Shown: positions 5,868 through 12,525 of the stretch, one piece after another | Numbering within the stretch: position 1 is the stretch's first letter | Layout of the letters: each line of letters begins with the position of its first letter | Origin: Marinifilum sp. | GTDB taxonomy: Bacteria > UBA9089 > CG2-30-40-21 | Reading direction: 5' to 3' | Assembly: GCA_020717845.1 (NCBI GenBank) | Contig: DYDG01000007.1 | Location: forward strand, 1-46,457 | DNA length: 46,457 nucleotides | Program-made: the position numbers and the translations under genes | The notes under the pieces: generated by a model | Seen by the model: the letters and a program-made list of their open reading frames with translations, nothing else | The model's database searches: none | Told to the model about the DNA's origin: nothing

Positions 5868-8800
5868 TTATCTTACAACCCCAAGTTTTCCTCTTTTCCC
5901 ACCTGTTATTGTATAGATATAAATACCTGAGGCAATGCTTTTCTTTGAAACATCCCATTTTTGAGGGCACTCTGTTACCTCTATTTCATCTATAAGCTCT
6001 CCGGCAATGTTGTAAATCTTGATCTTTGAACCATTGGTTACTTTGTCAAAGTAGATGTATTGCCCTCCCCCTTTTTCCCATGGGTTTGGATAGGCATAGG
6101 CTTTGTCATTATCGGTTATTGTTGATGTCCCGCCTCTAACAGTAAAGCTTCCACTTTCTCTGCTTGCAATATGATTTATATGCTCTTGTTCGTTATAGCT
6201 ATATATTATAGGAGACTCTATTATTATTTTAGTTGATTCACTACAGGGAGAAAAAGTCTCTGTTGTATAGGTCGCATAGACCATTCCTTCATTATCTGTG
6301 AATCCAAATTCAGGGGAAATACTGCTTGTCTGCCTCTGCTTTTTCTTCATTTCTTCAAATGGTCTTTCGTCAATTGTTACTCCTTCTTCTTCTTCTTCTT
6401 CTTCTTCTTCTTCTTCTTCTTTTAAACTAAATTGTGTATATACATTTGGCCGTGGATTATTCCATTCATCTAATAATTGAGCCTTTATCCTGATGGAATC
6501 ACCCGGAGCAACAAATGTTTCTTCTTGAGAAGGCTCTATCTCAAAATGCAGACGATATACCTCAAAAGCATCTACCTGTTTTTCTTCGGCTACAGCAAGG
6601 GTAACAGAGCCAGGATGAAATCCCATGGGAGAAGATACACAATCATGTCCATATTCTGGATGTTCTCCAACTCCTGCTAAGATGAGATAAGATTCTGGAG
6701 GTATATTTTCTAATCTATAGGGTGTTTGTGCAGCCACTGTTGGGTCTATATGAATTCTTGTGAAGAAAACACCATCACATTCCTCTGTTTCAGTCTCTCT
6801 TACATCTGTTATCAGCCATTCCCATTCATAAGGCAGGAGAACTACAGTCAATGTCCCTGAGTAATTACCTCGATATGTTATTGTCCCTTGTAAGCTTGCC
6901 GATGTATTTTCAAGATACATGGCCAAGAATTCATCCCAGTTTGTATCTTTTGAAAAATCAATAATATCTTCTGTATAAGTTCCATATTCTTCATCATAAA
7001 AGCTTTCTGGAAAGTAAATGCTCAATCCGTGCATTTCCCTTTTTGAGAAGTTAGCGATGATAGAAGTATCAAGCTCAGAAATGAGGTTTTCCACAGCTAA
7101 AGAGAGTGCATCTGAAATTGTGCCTGTTAATGTAGCAAAATGGTATAGATCAATATAAGATTCAGCAAAGGCTTTATCTGTCTCCTTCCATGCTGCCCTT
7201 ATTTTATCCCAATCTCCTGTATCTGTAAGAGAACCAATATAGTTAGAGAGTGCCCCTGCTAATTTATCTGTATTAGAAAGAGAGACTGCAGAAAGTGTAG
7301 GGCTTTCACCCATAAAAGAATCCTTTTCCCAATAATCTTTATACCTTCCTACTATTGAACCTCCAAGCTCAGCAGCACTCATGGTTGGTGTTCCATTCAG
7401 GTCTTTTAGAATGAGTTCATAAGGCCAGCCAGGAGCCAGTTCTATCTCCTGCGAGGCAACCATTACGTCTGCATAATCCTTTAGCTGATAGGCATTTTCA
7501 ATCATTCCCATCAAGCAGGCATCAAAGCCTATTAAATTTATCCTGGGCAATTGGGATAAGGCGTCCTGAACCTCACTCATATAAAGGCAATCTCCAGCAG
7601 ATGTATCATCCCAGCAGACAGCCTTTTTTCTTATCTTTTCAAGGCAAGCCTTATCTCTCCAACCATTACCATGATTCATAAACACAAAAGAATAGTTTTC
7701 TGCGGGATAATTCTTCATTGCCCAGGAGGCAAAATCTACTACTGTCTCAGGGTCTCCCATATTCACCTCATCAAGGCTTAAAACCTCTGGTGAGGTTATC
7801 AGCAGATCATTGTCATCCTTAAGCAAGTAATAATAAGATGAATTTTCATGTCCTTCTATTCCATCCATTAAGACAACAACATTTACCTTTTCTGACGAGC
7901 CAACACGCTCTATTATGTTTATATCATCCAGTGCATATTCCTCAAGGTTATTATCGCCATCAAGATAGACTATAAATGTCCAGGATTTTGTGCCATGAGA
8001 TATGGGTACTGCCTCTGAGTAGTTAGAATATACAGGTGGAGATTTTCTTTCTTTTTCCTTTCCATCTGAGATAATTGCATAGACAGAATAGGTGCCTTGT
8101 GGGATATAGGAGATTTTCCAGGTATAGCTGCCACGTGTATCATGTTCAGAGATACCTCCTGCAATCAAAATACCATCATAGTTTTCTTGATCTGTATCGT
8201 AATATAGGCTTATTTTTGCTTCGTCATCTAAATCTTCAGCGTCCCACATAAGGACAAGGCTTTCAGTTCCTTCTTCTGTGGGGGGTAAGAGAGTAATTGC
8301 AGGTGCTGTATTTGACCCAATCCAGATATCCTCTGGCATACACCAATTTCCTGTCTGTGTCCCTGTTAGTGCCCTTATCCTATAGTAATAAAACCCTGTT
8401 TCCTGTCTGCCAGGGATAAGACAAGATGTTCCTGGGGTTACAACTATGGAACTCCATGTAAATGTTTGAGTTGCCTCCTCAAGATCGTAATATTCTGCTT
8501 CATTTACAGGGGACCAGCTTACAGTAAAAGTTTCAAAAGGCGATACTGCATAAAGCGGACAAATGCTGGGAACATTAGGGGTTGTTTTGAAAAGCCTGGA
8601 AAGAAAATCAGGCCAGGTTGTATCGTTGCAAAAGTCGACAGGCTTGAGAAGGACATAGTCAGTATACTCCTCATCCTCTCTACTTTTTGGGAAGTATATA
8701 TTTAAGCCATAGAAATTGGAGCAATCTGAGCTTGCATAATTGGCAATTATTGTCCTATCTAAATTTTCCTTTAAAGATTCAGCTTTTTGAGTTATACTTT

Positions 8801-9776
8801 GGTCTAACAAACTGGCAAAATGATATAAATCAGCATAAACCCCACTTGCCTCTGTTCTATTTCTTGCCTCTTGAATATCTTCCCAATAATACTCTAAGGA
8901 ATCAGCAAACTCTGAGATTAATTCTGGTGCTAAATCATCAAGACAGGTTAAATCAATTGCCGATTGTGTTATTCCGCTTTCACCAGGATAAGCCTGTCCA
9001 TATCTATCTACAATTACCGTACCAAGCTCATTAACACCCATGGTTGGAGTTGCTGCTAAATCCCTCAAAATGACATCATAAGGCCAGCCATCCCCAGGTT
9101 CTTCCTCCTGTGAGAATACTGTAACACTGCCTAAATCCCTGAGCTGATATGCAACCTCAATCATTCCCATCAGGCAGGCATCAAAGCCTATTAGATCGAG
9201 CCTTTTACCTGTTGCCTCAAGTGCCTCTTTTACCTCACTCATGTAGAGGCAGTCATCTCCTGATGTGTCATCCCAACAAACAGCCTTGTTATGACCGTCT
9301 ATTTTAACACTTCTTTTTTGCAAACTTCTTGTTTTTTCCCGCCAGCCGCCGCCATGGTTCCAGAAAATAAGGCTATATTTTTTAGCAGGATAATTGGCAA
9401 TTGCCCAATTTGCAAAATTGGTTAATGTCTGAGTGGCAGCCATATTTACCTCTCGACCTCCCTTCCCATCCCCCCAGTTAGAAATAGCCTGAGATTCATA
9501 TGGTTCCATACCTTTGGCAATCAGAAATCTATGACATTTTGTCCAGTTTCCATGCGATGTGTCAAAGCCTTTAACTCTATCCATCTGAACAACAATGTTT
9601 ATATCCTCATCTGAACCAACAGAAGCCATCTCTAAAAAATCGTCAATGGCATCTTCCTCTAAATTATTATCTCCATCGAGATATACCATAAAGGTATGTT
9701 CTTTTTCCTCGGCATAAGCCTCTATCCCCATACCTAAAGCTATTCCCAAAATGAGCAAAAATCTTAAGACTTGCAT
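5868..9776 (-). CDS. Secreted tandem clostripain-family (peptidase C11) protein with C-terminal T9SS/FlgD-like sorting domain
   Basis: Signal peptide; two copies of 'FMVYLDGDNNLEE...NHGGGWR/NHGNGWR...LIGFDACLMGMIE' with His and Cys intact in both; C-terminal 'AYPNPWEKGG...IYNIAGELIDEIE...ASGIYIYTITGG'. Confidence 0.85.
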   Translation of the reverse strand: MQVLRFLLILGIALGMGIEAYAEEKEHTFMVYLDGDNNLEEDAIDDFLEMASVGSDEDINIVVQMDRVKGFDTSHGNWTKCHRFLIAKGMEPYESQAISNWGDGKGGREVNMAATQTLTNFANWAIANYPAKKYSLIFWNHGGGWREKTRSLQKRSVKIDGHNKAVCWDDTSGDDCLYMSEVKEALEATGKRLDLIGFDACLMGMIEVAYQLRDLGSVTVFSQEEEPGDGWPYDVILRDLAATPTMGVNELGTVIVDRYGQAYPGESGITQSAIDLTCLDDLAPELISEFADSLEYYWEDIQEARNRTEASGVYADLYHFASLLDQSITQKAESLKENLDRTIIANYASSDCSNFYGLNIYFPKSREDEEYTDYVLLKPVDFCNDTTWPDFLSRLFKTTPNVPSICPLYAVSPFETFTVSWSPVNEAEYYDLEEATQTFTWSSIVVTPGTSCLIPGRQETGFYYYRIRALTGTQTGNWCMPEDIWIGSNTAPAITLLPPTEEGTESLVLMWDAEDLDDEAKISLYYDTDQENYDGILIAGGISEHDTRGSYTWKISYIPQGTYSVYAIISDGKEKERKSPPVYSNYSEAVPISHGTKSWTFIVYLDGDNNLEEYALDDINIIERVGSSEKVNVVVLMDGIEGHENSSYYYLLKDDNDLLITSPEVLSLDEVNMGDPETVVDFASWAMKNYPAENYSFVFMNHGNGWRDKACLEKIRKKAVCWDDTSAGDCLYMSEVQDALSQLPRINLIGFDACLMGMIENAYQLKDYADVMVASQEIELAPGWPYELILKDLNGTPTMSAAELGGSIVGRYKDYWEKDSFMGESPTLSAVSLSNTDKLAGALSNYIGSLTDTGDWDKIRAAWKETDKAFAESYIDLYHFATLTGTISDALSLAVENLISELDTSIIANFSKREMHGLSIYFPESFYDEEYGTYTEDIIDFSKDTNWDEFLAMYLENTSASLQGTITYRGNYSGTLTVVLLPYEWEWLITDVRETETEECDGVFFTRIHIDPTVAAQTPYRLENIPPESYLILAGVGEHPEYGHDCVSSPMGFHPGSVTLAVAEEKQVDAFEVYRLHFEIEPSQEETFVAPGDSIRIKAQLLDEWNNPRPNVYTQFSLKEEEEEEEEEEEEGVTIDERPFEEMKKKQRQTSSISPEFGFTDNEGMVYATYTTETFSPCSESTKIIIESPIIYSYNEQEHINHIASRESGSFTVRGGTSTITDNDKAYAYPNPWEKGGGQYIYFDKVTNGSKIKIYNIAGELIDEIEVTECPQKWDVSKKSIASGIYIYTITGGKRGKLGVVR
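6384..6419. repeat. (TTC)12 trinucleotide microsatellite encoding 12 Glu inside the clostripain CDS
   Basis: Counted directly in the sequence. Confidence 0.95.
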
Positions 9777-9797: not shown

Positions 9798-10031
9798 GAT
9801 GTTCAAGTTTTTTGTGGCTTATAGGAACCACCAGAATAGAGCGGTAAAATGCCAGCCGATATTCTTGTAGCTACAACCTGCCAGAGGCAGGTGGGAGTCC
9901 CACTGCAGAAGGTCTGCTGCCAGTGCTACCTCCTTGTGGTCGCTTCTTATTCCCATGCGTGATTGAAAGATAGCAGGGACAAGCCCCGCAGCTACAAGCA
10001 CTATTGCTTGGTGGCAAAAAACTTGAACATC
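9798..10031. mobile_element. MITE-like element with 17-bp perfect terminal inverted repeats
   Basis: GATGTTCAAGTTTTTTG (9798-9814) and CAAAAAACTTGAACATC (10015-10031); interior carries the dispersed 'CCTGCCAGAGGCAGGTGGGAGTCCCACTGC' repeat. Confidence 0.65.
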
Positions 10032-10034
10032 AAG

Positions 10035-11363
10035 TTAAAAGCTCTTCTCCACCTCTTCTATGATCTTTTCAATTGGGATACCATCGTGATCGCCAAAGTA
10101 AGCATAGCCGTTTTCTGAAGCCGCTGGCTTCTTCTCTCCTTTTTCTACCCTCTCTTCCCTTTCTTCCTTTGCCTTTTTCGCTGATTCTGCCTCAGCCTTT
10201 GATTCCTTTAAGGTTTCTATATCAATTACCTCGGCAATACCAATCTTTTTTTCCTCTACAGGAGATGGTTGGGCGATAACTTTGGCAGTTATAGGCAAGG
10301 GAATACTTTCCTCGTGAGAGATCAATTCCCATGGAATTTCTGACTCTTTTCTTGTTTCAGGTTTTTCCACAGGTTGTTCAACAGACAACAAGGGTGATAC
10401 AGGGAATTCATTAAATACATCCATGCCAAATGATGACGAAACATCCACTGTTCCGACCATACCACTGCTCTTAGAATAGGTAAACAAACCTCTGATACCG
10501 CCCATATCGATATACCCATGTATACCCTTTCCTTTTGTATAGGTAAATTCACCCTTAGCATCACCCATTTCTGCAACACCAATGATGCCTTTTTCCTTTG
10601 TATAGGTAAAATCACTCTTTATTTCATCCATTTCAATTACGCCCATAATACCCCTATCCTTTGAATAGGTAAATTCACCCTTTACGCCATCAAGGTCTAT
10701 TATCCCAACAATCCCCTTATCCTTCAAATAAATAAACTCTCCGGTAGCTTCTCCAAGAGCAACGGTTCCCTCAATGCCTTTTTGAAAATTAAACCTAAAA
10801 TTCCCTTTGGCATCTCCAAGGTCTATCGTTCCAAATATCCCCCTATCCTTCCAATAGGTAAAACTTCCCTCAATGCCATCAAGATTTAATATTCCCATAA
10901 TACCCTTTGCCAGAGTATAGGAAAATGGAGCGGTTATGTTTCGCAAGGCCACATTTCCGATAATTCCTTTGTGCTTAGAATAGGTAAATTCACCAAGAGC
11001 ATCTCCCATTTTGATTGTCCCGAATATACCCCTTGCTTTGGTATAAGTAAATTCACCATCAGCATCTCCCATCTTTACCATACCAACAAGACCTTTTTCC
11101 TTTGTATAAACAAACTCTGCTGGCATCTTGCCCAGCATTACTGTTCCAAAGACACCCTTTTCTTTTGAATAAGTAAACTCACCATCAGCCTCCCCCAATT
11201 TCACTGTGCCAACAATACCCTTGTCTCGCGTATAGACAAACTCACCCTGAGCCTCTCCAAGCTCTACCATCCCCACAATGCCCTTGTCCTTGGAAAAGAC
11301 AAAACTGCTCTTGACACCACCCATATCAACACTTCCAGAAAGACCTTGATTACTCATTCTCAT
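10035..11363 (-). CDS. Repeat protein: 14 tandem 21-aa repeats plus charged C-terminal tail
   Basis: Repeats of the form G-x-F-x-Y-[ST]-K-x-[KR]-G-I-x-G-x-[IV]-x-[LM]-G-[DE]-A-x; no signal peptide visible. Confidence 0.85.
   Translation of the reverse strand: MRMSNQGLSGSVDMGGVKSSFVFSKDKGIVGMVELGEAQGEFVYTRDKGIVGTVKLGEADGEFTYSKEKGVFGTVMLGKMPAEFVYTKEKGLVGMVKMGDADGEFTYTKARGIFGTIKMGDALGEFTYSKHKGIIGNVALRNITAPFSYTLAKGIMGILNLDGIEGSFTYWKDRGIFGTIDLGDAKGNFRFNFQKGIEGTVALGEATGEFIYLKDKGIVGIIDLDGVKGEFTYSKDRGIMGVIEMDEIKSDFTYTKEKGIIGVAEMGDAKGEFTYTKGKGIHGYIDMGGIRGLFTYSKSSGMVGTVDVSSSFGMDVFNEFPVSPLLSVEQPVEKPETRKESEIPWELISHEESIPLPITAKVIAQPSPVEEKKIGIAEVIDIETLKESKAEAESAKKAKEEREERVEKGEKKPAASENGYAYFGDHDGIPIEKIIEEVEKSF
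10428..11309 (-). repeat. 63-bp (21-aa) x14 in-frame tandem repeat region
   Basis: Aligned by eye from SSFVFSKDKGIVGMVELGEAQ to GLFTYSKSSGMVGTVDVSSSF with no indels. Confidence 0.85.
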
Positions 11364-11415: not shown

Positions 11416-11850
11416 TTACAGACTATCCAGATACCCCTGCAGGATTATGGATGCTGCAATCTTATCCACCATCTGCTTTCTCTTATCCCGAGACAACCCT
11501 GCCTCAAGCATAGCATTTTCTGCAGCCCTTGAGGAAAGCCTTTCATCCCATGGCCGAAATTCAACAATATTTCCTTCAGGGGAAGATGCTATGGTTTGTT
11601 TAAGCCTTTCCATAAAGTCGATAACCTTTTCTGCCTGTGGGCCAATACTGCCATTCATATTCTTAGGCAACCCAAACACTACTTTTGAGACCTCAGAGGA
11701 AGCAACAATTTCCTTTAACTCTTTCCTAACAGCCTCATCCCCTGCACCTGATCTTGTTATAACCTTAAGAGGCTGGGCAAACATACCCAGGGGATCGCTA
11801 ATAGCTATGCCAATATATTTATCACCAATATCCAACCCTATAATTCTCAT
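11416..11850 (-). CDS. ruvX: Putative pre-16S rRNA nuclease / Holliday junction resolvase-like YqgF
   Basis: MRIIGLDIGDKYIGIAISDPLGMFAQPL...VFGLPKNMNGSIGPQAEKV...WDERLSSRAAE; adjacent to alaS. Confidence 0.9.
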   Translation of the reverse strand: MRIIGLDIGDKYIGIAISDPLGMFAQPLKVITRSGAGDEAVRKELKEIVASSEVSKVVFGLPKNMNGSIGPQAEKVIDFMERLKQTIASSPEGNIVEFRPWDERLSSRAAENAMLEAGLSRDKRKQMVDKIAASIILQGYLDSL

Positions 11851-11853
11851 CTA

Positions 11854-12525
11854 CTATTTCTTCATCTCCCGATAGATCCCTTTTAGCGACCCTCCGATAT
11901 CCTGTCTCCTGGGTTCCTCATTCTTTTCGAGAAAGGATTCAATATTCTTTCTTAGCCAGCAAACCTCTCTGGTCAGCCTCTCTATTTCGAGAACAACATC
12001 GCTTAATCCCTTTTCCTCAGCAAATAAAAGAGCTGCAGTAACAGTCAGATCAATATGATACGATTTTTCATGAGTATCGCCAATAATATCAGTATAAAAG
12101 GTTTTTACCTTAAATTCCTTTGGATTATTCTTATTAGTCATATATTCAACTGCGGCTGCAAAGAAAAACCTTATCTGTTCTCCTGGGGCAAGATGTGTCA
12201 ACCCCTTAAATATAGGCAGATCAGAGAACATTATCCTCGGTTCATTTCGATAGACAATATCAGGTTGAAAATTGCATTTAATATTAAATGCAGGTCCGCC
12301 ACCAATATTTGTCACCTTTACCTCAAGTATTTGCGGAGACTGTTCTTTGGGTTTAATATCAATAACCACATATGGCTTAGACTCTTCCTTTCGTATCTCC
12401 TTTATCTCATTTACCAATGCTCTGGTAGATTCCGTGGATCTTTTTATCCGATACGCCACATATGCCATCATTATCAAATAAATTGCCCCTGTAAATGTTA
12501 AAAATACCGTTCCCCATTCCTCCAT
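11854..12525 (-). CDS. Membrane-anchored hypothetical protein
   Basis: 223-aa ORF with one N-terminal TM followed by a soluble domain; sits between ruvX and alaS on the same strand. Confidence 0.65.
   Translation of the reverse strand: MEEWGTVFLTFTGAIYLIMMAYVAYRIKRSTESTRALVNEIKEIRKEESKPYVVIDIKPKEQSPQILEVKVTNIGGGPAFNIKCNFQPDIVYRNEPRIMFSDLPIFKGLTHLAPGEQIRFFFAAAVEYMTNKNNPKEFKVKTFYTDIIGDTHEKSYHIDLTVTAALLFAEEKGLSDVVLEIERLTREVCWLRKNIESFLEKNEEPRRQDIGGSLKGIYREMKK

What the first reader, a model, noticed from the sequence alone, without database searches (positions are those of the whole stretch)
10035..11363. Protein with 14 perfectly phased 21-aa repeats and no obvious known repeat family
Seen: fourteen gapless 21-residue units (consensus ~GEFTYSKEKGIVGTVKLGDAK), preceded by a half repeat and followed by a charged, probably disordered tail ending in a short helix (IPIEKIIEEVEKSF). 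Each unit has two alternating hydrophobic stretches separated by a K-x-[KR]-G-I turn. Inference: a beta-hairpin meander or solenoid somewhat reminiscent of MORN repeats but with a different signature. No signal peptide, so probably a cytoplasmic scaffold. It may be a new repeat family.
Basis: partly seen in the sequence, partly recalled or inferred. Interest (0 to 1): 0.7.

Follow-up and report, generated by a model that had tools for sequence, protein, structure and literature searches.

The report
Fourteen-repeat hairpin-sheet protein beside ruvX
An uncultured bacterial order carries a conserved, probably intracellular protein made of exactly fourteen copies of a 21-residue unit, predicted to fold into one long ribbon of beta-hairpins; it matches no catalogued repeat family and is always encoded next to the RNA-processing gene ruvX, but what it does is not known.

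Summary
In detail: 10035-11363 (-) encodes a 442-aa protein (more likely 440 aa, from the second ATG at 11357) with 14 gapless 21-aa units, a leading half unit and a variable tail ending in an invariant motif, IPIEKIIEEVEKSF. Orthologues (48-90% identical, dN/dS about 0.11 in the repeats within the genus) occur once in each of the 8 held genomes of the order, two families near Ca. Desantisbacteria. All have exactly 14 units and the gene order TM protein - ruvX - repeat protein. Nothing was found in the 11 other genomes of the phylum or in about 750 further genomes. No Pfam, NCBIfam or PDB sequence family matches; MORN, RHS/YD and SYLF were tested and not met by sequence. AlphaFold2 with 8 orthologues (repeat pLDDT mostly about 90) gives about 29 strands of 7-8 residues joined by mostly 2-4 residue turns. 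Foldseek's best neighbours include single-layer beta-sheets (OspA) and, less surely, YD/RHS hairpin spirals. Turn residues, a Phe-Gly ladder and charge pairing between neighbouring strands support an antiparallel hairpin meander with one greasy face. Best reading: a new sequence family of hairpin-meander repeat, probably a cytoplasmic scaffold with a C-terminal docking peptide. The fold is moderately supported; the function is inference.

The parts
10035..11363 (-). Repeat-protein gene, 442 aa (probable true start ATG at 11357, 440 aa)
   Evidence: dN/dS about 0.11 in the repeat region
11310..11342 (-). Leading half unit (residues 8-18): strand 2 only, so the array starts and ends with the same strand type
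10428..11309 (-). Fourteen gapless 21-aa units (residues 19-312), two predicted strands each
10101..10427 (-). Variable, mostly low-confidence linker (residues 313-421), with a predicted helix at residues 383-408; faster evolving than the repeats in every pair compared
10038..10100 (-). Conserved C-terminal motif (residues 422-442): YF-D...IPIEKIIEEVEKSF, the last 14 residues identical in all 8 orthologues; predicted helix, low confidence
11416..11850 (-). ruvX/yqgF (Pfam RuvX, E 2e-41), directly upstream of the repeat gene in all 8 genomes
11854..12525 (-). 223-aa protein with one N-terminal hydrophobic (predicted TM) segment, no Pfam family; directly upstream of ruvX in all 8 genomes, found only in the same 8 of 19 genomes of the phylum

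Best explanation
The gene encodes a cytosolic structural or scaffold protein. Its 14 units (plus a half unit) form about 29 antiparallel strands of 7-8 residues joined by very tight turns, i.e. one continuous beta-hairpin meander. One face is greasy and strictly conserved (A20, G1, F3, Y5 on strand 1; I11, G13, V15, L/M17 on strand 2), the other polar and charged. In the implied register every invariant Gly13 is flanked by a Phe3 on both sides, and Y5-I11, V15-G1 and 16-21 charge pairs continue the ladders. Because the greasy face cannot stay bare in water, the sheet most likely either pairs face to face with another copy, curls on itself, or holds a partner along that face. The conserved C-terminal helix on a flexible linker is most likely a docking peptide for a conserved partner, which could be the neighbouring membrane-anchored protein. 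SHOWN: repeats, conservation, fixed count, gene order, absence of known families. PREDICTED: strands, turns, meander. INFERRED: register, burial of the greasy face, scaffold role, docking, any link to RuvX.
For: Repeat architecture and exact count of 14 in eight orthologues at 48-90% identity. AlphaFold2 with the alignment: block-mean pLDDT about 80-94 over most of the array, strands of 7-8 residues separated by mostly 2-4 residues. Foldseek hits OspA single-layer sheets with probability up to 0.99 and E 9e-4, and YD/RHS sheets with probability up to 0.84. Turn residues independent of the model: K-[DE]-[KR]-G is typical of a type I + G1-bulge hairpin, and L/M-[GD]-[DEG]-A of two-residue hairpins (turn preferences from general knowledge). 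Charge products for 16-21 neighbours predicted by the meander are -20 against -3.5 +/- 5.1 when units are shuffled (0.0005 of shuffles as low); same-position stacking, as in a solenoid, shows no such complementarity. Tail: 14 invariant C-terminal residues behind a diverged linker. Gene order kept in 8/8 genomes while outer neighbours differ.
Against: The model rests on 8 sequences; the single-sequence model gave a different, solenoid-leaning answer. pTM is only 0.59 and TM-scores to OspA are 0.16-0.32, so the overall shape is not established; the top three Foldseek rows are propeller lectins with TM-scores near 0.1. The C-terminal helix is low confidence and not shown docked to anything. The charge test uses three related sequences whose units share ancestry. 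Gene order in one clade is one evolutionary event and may only reflect an inherited operon. No functional data exist.
Confidence: 0.5

Rival explanations
1. Beta-solenoid: each unit is one rung, with the two strands on opposite walls and the greasy residues stacked inside (curli- or bactofilin-like).
For: 21 residues with two strands fits a two-sided rung; the single-sequence model's best (insignificant) hits were curli CsgA and beta-helices, with long continuous strands; it would bury the greasy face without a partner.
Against: Those hits had E of 0.3 or worse. The more confident aligned model matches antiparallel single-layer sheets. Turn sequences fit hairpins, and charge complementarity appears between meander neighbours and not at stacked positions.
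Confidence: 0.17
2. A divergent relative of YD/RHS repeats: a hairpin sheet that spirals into an open or closed shell around a partner.
For: The only weak hits outside the order (E 1e-6 to 5e-4, 21-24% identity) fall in RHS proteins; hhalign 40-53% probability, pairwise E about 1e-4, over 150-230 columns in those same proteins; Foldseek 0.84 to teneurin; same period of about 21.
Against: Those RHS proteins were picked as best of many; other RHS proteins, including ones from the same order, score at chance. No RHS_repeat Pfam match at E<=10, no YD signature, no core domain, no secretion signal; 29 strands is short for a closed shell.
Confidence: 0.13
3. Tandem copies of the hairpin found in SYLF (Ysc84) domains, perhaps lipid binding.
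For: 12 of 17 four-unit blocks hit Pfam Ysc84 weakly, best E 1.6e-4; the SYLF protein of G023 carries GEIYSYSRAKGIFGGISVKG; hhalign 33% over 15 columns.
Against: Only about 13-18 residues match, below Pfam's cut-off where the score was shown (17.8 against 25.1 bits); the reverse search gives E 0.06; three other SYLF proteins show nothing; no SYLF gene in these genomes.
Confidence: 0.07
4. An accessory to RuvX function: the trio forms one complex that tethers pre-16S rRNA processing to the membrane.
For: Strict gene order TM protein - ruvX - repeat protein in 8/8 genomes, with outer neighbours changing; both partners restricted to the same order.
Against: One clade, so one event; operon neighbours of housekeeping genes are often unrelated in function; no interaction evidence.
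Confidence: 0.13

Closest known systems
OspA-type single-layer beta-sheet (Borrelia outer surface protein A)
   Same: Continuous antiparallel strands with tight turns; Foldseek probability up to 0.99, E 9e-4; OspA has a central single-layer sheet (PMC12183334).
   Different: No sequence match; OspA is a surface lipoprotein whose sheet joins two globular regions, and both faces of its central strands are solvent exposed (literature); here 29 strands with one greasy face, no signal sequence, no globular ends.
MORN repeats (PF02493)
   Same: One hairpin per unit, similar unit length (21 against 23), Gly paired with aromatics on one face, incomplete first repeat, arrays of about 15 units (PMC7725318).
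   Different: No GxG or YEGEW motif; no MORN match at E<=10; no profile match; not in the Foldseek rows shown; MORN hairpins have 6-residue strands with 5- and 6-residue loops, here 7-8 residue strands with mostly 2-4 residue turns.
YD/RHS repeats (PF05593; teneurin, Rhs proteins)
   Same: Hairpin per repeat, period about 21, extended sheet (PMC6425310); weak hits at sequence and fold level.
   Different: No YD motif, no core domain, no Pfam match, far fewer strands, very different tail.
SYLF/Ysc84 hairpin (PF04366)
   Same: Short local likeness [FY]xYS[KR]xxGIxGxI.
   Different: About 15 residues of a domain modelled over 127 positions; not significant in the reverse direction.
Outer-membrane beta-barrels (hairpin amplification, Gly-aromatic pairs)
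   Same: Repeated hairpins and an aromatic residue packed on Gly of the next strand (PMC5542473).
   Different: No signal peptide, strands of only 7-8 residues, no Pfam match, disordered acidic/lysine tail with a helix at the C-terminus.

Membership tests
MORN (PF02493) | Profile match over the curated cut-off | tested here: not met
   No match at E<=10 in the window protein or orthologues; PF02493 search of all 8 genomes of the order negative
MORN (PF02493) | GxG and YEGEW motifs with 23-residue period | tested here: not met
   Period 21; consensus GEFTYSK-KGIVGTV-LG-A; motif definition from PMC7725318
MORN (PF02493) | One beta-hairpin per unit, aromatic-lined groove | tested here: inconclusive
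   Hairpin per unit predicted; groove not testable without coordinates
YD/RHS repeat (PF05593) | Profile match | tested here: not met
   No Pfam RHS_repeat hit at E<=10; own genome has no PF05593 match at all
YD/RHS repeat (PF05593) | Sheet spiralling into a shell with an RHS core domain | tested here: inconclusive
   Core domain not found by Pfam; curvature of the sheet cannot be read from the outputs given
SYLF/Ysc84 (PF04366) | Match over the curated cut-off across the domain | tested here: not met
   17.8 bits against 25.1, positions 65-80 of 127 only, for the one member shown in full; reverse E 0.06
OspA-type single-layer sheet | Antiparallel single-layer meander | tested here: inconclusive
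   Predicted with high local confidence; Foldseek probability up to 0.99, but TM-scores only 0.16-0.32 for OspA
OspA-type single-layer sheet | Sequence homology to OspA | tested here: not met
   PDB profile searches find no OspA
Beta-solenoid | Parallel stacked rungs | tested here: inconclusive
   Single-sequence model leans this way with insignificant hits; aligned model and charge test do not

The most novel reading that the evidence does not exclude
A new protein repeat family in which 14 hairpins form a stand-alone cytosolic beta-ribbon of fixed length, with one greasy face, acting as a length-defined scaffold that positions RuvX-dependent rRNA processing at the membrane through the co-encoded anchor protein and the invariant C-terminal peptide.
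Probability: 0.1. Interest if true: 0.75.

Novelty: new variant of a known kind. Interest (0 to 1): 0.42.

Why it matters
Natural long single-layer beta-sheets are rare and are mostly known from one surface protein and from designs built on it. An intracellular protein with a fixed run of 14 near-identical hairpins would be a clean test case for how such sheets stay soluble and whether they pair face to face. The strict gene order with ruvX also gives an order of uncultured bacteria a testable candidate partner for a housekeeping enzyme.

Tried and rejected
Family libraries: Pfam, NCBIfam and PHROGs gave nothing usable (PHROGs hits at E 0.001-0.01 to phage tail proteins look like repeat and composition matches). 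PDB by sequence gave only antibody fragments, protein G and similar, rejected as chance. Viral contigs, phages and plasmids had no relative; a scan of viral contigs with the 4-unit alignment was not possible. A 4-unit profile in 384 + 381 genomes found only the order; one search contained no positive genome, so it shows little by itself. One genome-contig scan found five loci, all from the same group. The C-terminal motif was not found elsewhere in the eight genomes above chance. MORN, RHS and SYLF were compared by profile in both directions. Foldseek against viral models gave no match below E 0.001.

Full report
Observation. The minus-strand ORF 10035-11363 encodes 442 residues. Residues 19-312 are 14 gapless 21-residue units; identity at lag 21 is 0.45 against a shuffle mean of 0.08, maximum 0.13 in 1000 shuffles. 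A half unit precedes them and a charged tail follows. The upstream sequence TATGGAGGTATGAGAATGAGT puts a ribosome-binding site (GGAGGT) about 6 nt before the second ATG and directly against the first, and orthologue L004 lacks the first Met, so the protein probably starts at 11357.

Distribution. The protein is single copy in its genome. Orthologues occur in all eight held genomes of the order: three in the same genus at 79-90% identity and four in a second family at about 48-53% (48-50% over the alignment). No match was found in the other 11 genomes of the phylum or, with a four-unit profile, in about 750 further genomes (the second set held no positive control). Named relatives include a Candidatus Desantisbacteria MAG, two 'bacterium' MAGs of one study, one further 'bacterium' MAG and one record labelled Nitrospira sp.; that last label is probably a misnaming, as its contig is the one held here as a member of this order (3712 bp). 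Viral contigs, phages and plasmids have none.

Evolution. Every orthologue has exactly 14 units in the same place. Within each family, same-numbered units match best in 14/14 comparisons; between families in only 4-6/14. So the array is old, with no gain or loss of units since the families split, though between families units have diverged or homogenised. dN/dS is about 0.11 in the repeats for pairs within the genus, and higher in the linker (0.2-0.4). The last 14 residues, IPIEKIIEEVEKSF, are identical in all eight although the linker before them varies in length and sequence.

Gene neighbourhood. In all eight genomes the order on one strand is: a 222-223 aa protein with an N-terminal hydrophobic segment followed by basic residues, then ruvX, then the repeat gene (RuvX by Pfam). 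The 223-aa protein was found only in the same eight genomes of the phylum and has no Pfam family. Outer neighbours differ. Downstream: a clostripain-family gene here (Pfam); elsewhere an RNA-binding protein, an MnmE-like protein and a pair of small genes. Upstream: AlaS in three genomes of the genus, an AroA-like gene in another genus. Apart from the clostripain gene these outer names are read by eye from sequence starts and were not tested. The trio is thus a kept unit within one clade, which fits an operon but is a single evolutionary event.

Known families. No Pfam or NCBIfam match for the window protein at E<=10. Orthologues and four-unit blocks give only weak local hits, the strongest to Ysc84/SYLF, best E 1.6e-4, about 16-18 residues. 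The likeness is visible (GEIYSYSRAKGIFGGISVKG against GEFTYSKARGIFGTIKMGD) but is not significant in reverse (E 0.06). MORN shows nothing. RHS/YD repeats give weak, selected hits: the only matches outside the order lie in proteins that carry RHS repeats, and hhalign gives them 40-53%, while other RHS proteins score at chance.

Structure. Alone, the protein gave a mixed model (mean pLDDT 66) whose best, insignificant, neighbours were solenoids. With eight orthologues the repeat region rises mostly to about 90 (block means 79-94 for residues 31-290), with strands of 7-8 residues and breaks of mostly 2-4 residues. Foldseek then finds several OspA single-layer sheets (probability 0.5-0.99, best E 9e-4) and YD/RHS sheets (up to 0.84), along with propeller lectins at TM-score near 0.1 that I set aside. 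TM-scores to OspA are only 0.16-0.32, so the local pattern is shared but not the overall shape. Three lines of sequence evidence favour antiparallel hairpins over a solenoid. (a) Turn residues: K-[DE]-[KR]-G at one end and [GD]-[DEG] at the other are classic hairpin turns (turn preferences from general knowledge). (b) The strand boundaries imply one register for both turns (i+j=16 within a unit, i+j=37 to the next), which puts invariant Gly13 between two Phe3 residues, and aromatic-Gly neighbours are a known stabilising pair in other hairpin-repeat proteins (PMC5542473). (c) Charges at positions 16 and 21, neighbours in that register, are complementary (-20 against -3.5 +/- 5.1, 0.0005 of shuffles as low), while same-position stacking shows none. 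Limit of (c): three related sequences whose units share ancestry.

How it probably works. One face of the sheet (A20, G1, F3, Y5; I11, G13, V15, L/M17) is hydrophobic and strongly conserved, the other polar and more variable. A bare greasy face is unlikely in the cytosol, so face-to-face pairing, curling, or a bound partner is expected (inference). The array starts and ends with the same strand type, so simple head-to-tail extension would break the strand alternation; fixed-size particles seem likelier than open fibres (inference). MORN proteins offer a working analogy: hairpin arrays that dimerise and whose groove binds a partner (PMC7725318, which also describes the MORN4-myosin 3a complex). 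The invariant C-terminal peptide on a flexible linker is the natural docking element (inference). RuvX or the membrane protein are candidate partners only because of gene order.

Verdict. A real, conserved, lineage-restricted protein of a repeat family absent from the libraries searched, belonging to the broad kind 'beta-hairpin meander'. The fold is moderately well supported; the function is not established. 'New' means not in Pfam, NCBIfam or PDB sequences as searched here; AlphaFold DB and unpublished families could not be checked.

Noticed in passing
11854-12525: 223-aa protein with one N-terminal hydrophobic segment and no Pfam family, strongly conserved, always upstream of ruvX in this order; a weak paralogue of it exists in G007 (C331).
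   Followed up: partly
9835-10010: Intergenic stretch with pieces repeated about 59 times across the genome (70-100% identity over 28-150 bases): a dispersed short repeat, cause unknown.
   Followed up: partly
5868-9776: 1302-aa protein with two clostripain-family (Peptidase_C11) stretches, a run of about 14 Glu, and a weak C-terminal sorting-domain match just under Pfam's cut-off.
   Followed up: no
282-2798: 838-aa ORF with a PEP-CTERM motif at residues 66-88, i.e. near the N-terminus, ahead of a PMT_2 glycosyltransferase region: an unusual place for a sorting motif, possibly two genes fused or read through.
   Followed up: no
L009, L010, L012: Long RHS/YD-repeat proteins are common across this phylum, with many copies in several genomes of the order, but PF05593 gave no match in the window's own genome.
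   Followed up: partly
L051: The SYLF protein of G023 carries a 20-residue hairpin motif strikingly like one unit of the repeat protein (GEIYSYSRAKGIFGGISVKG).
   Followed up: partly
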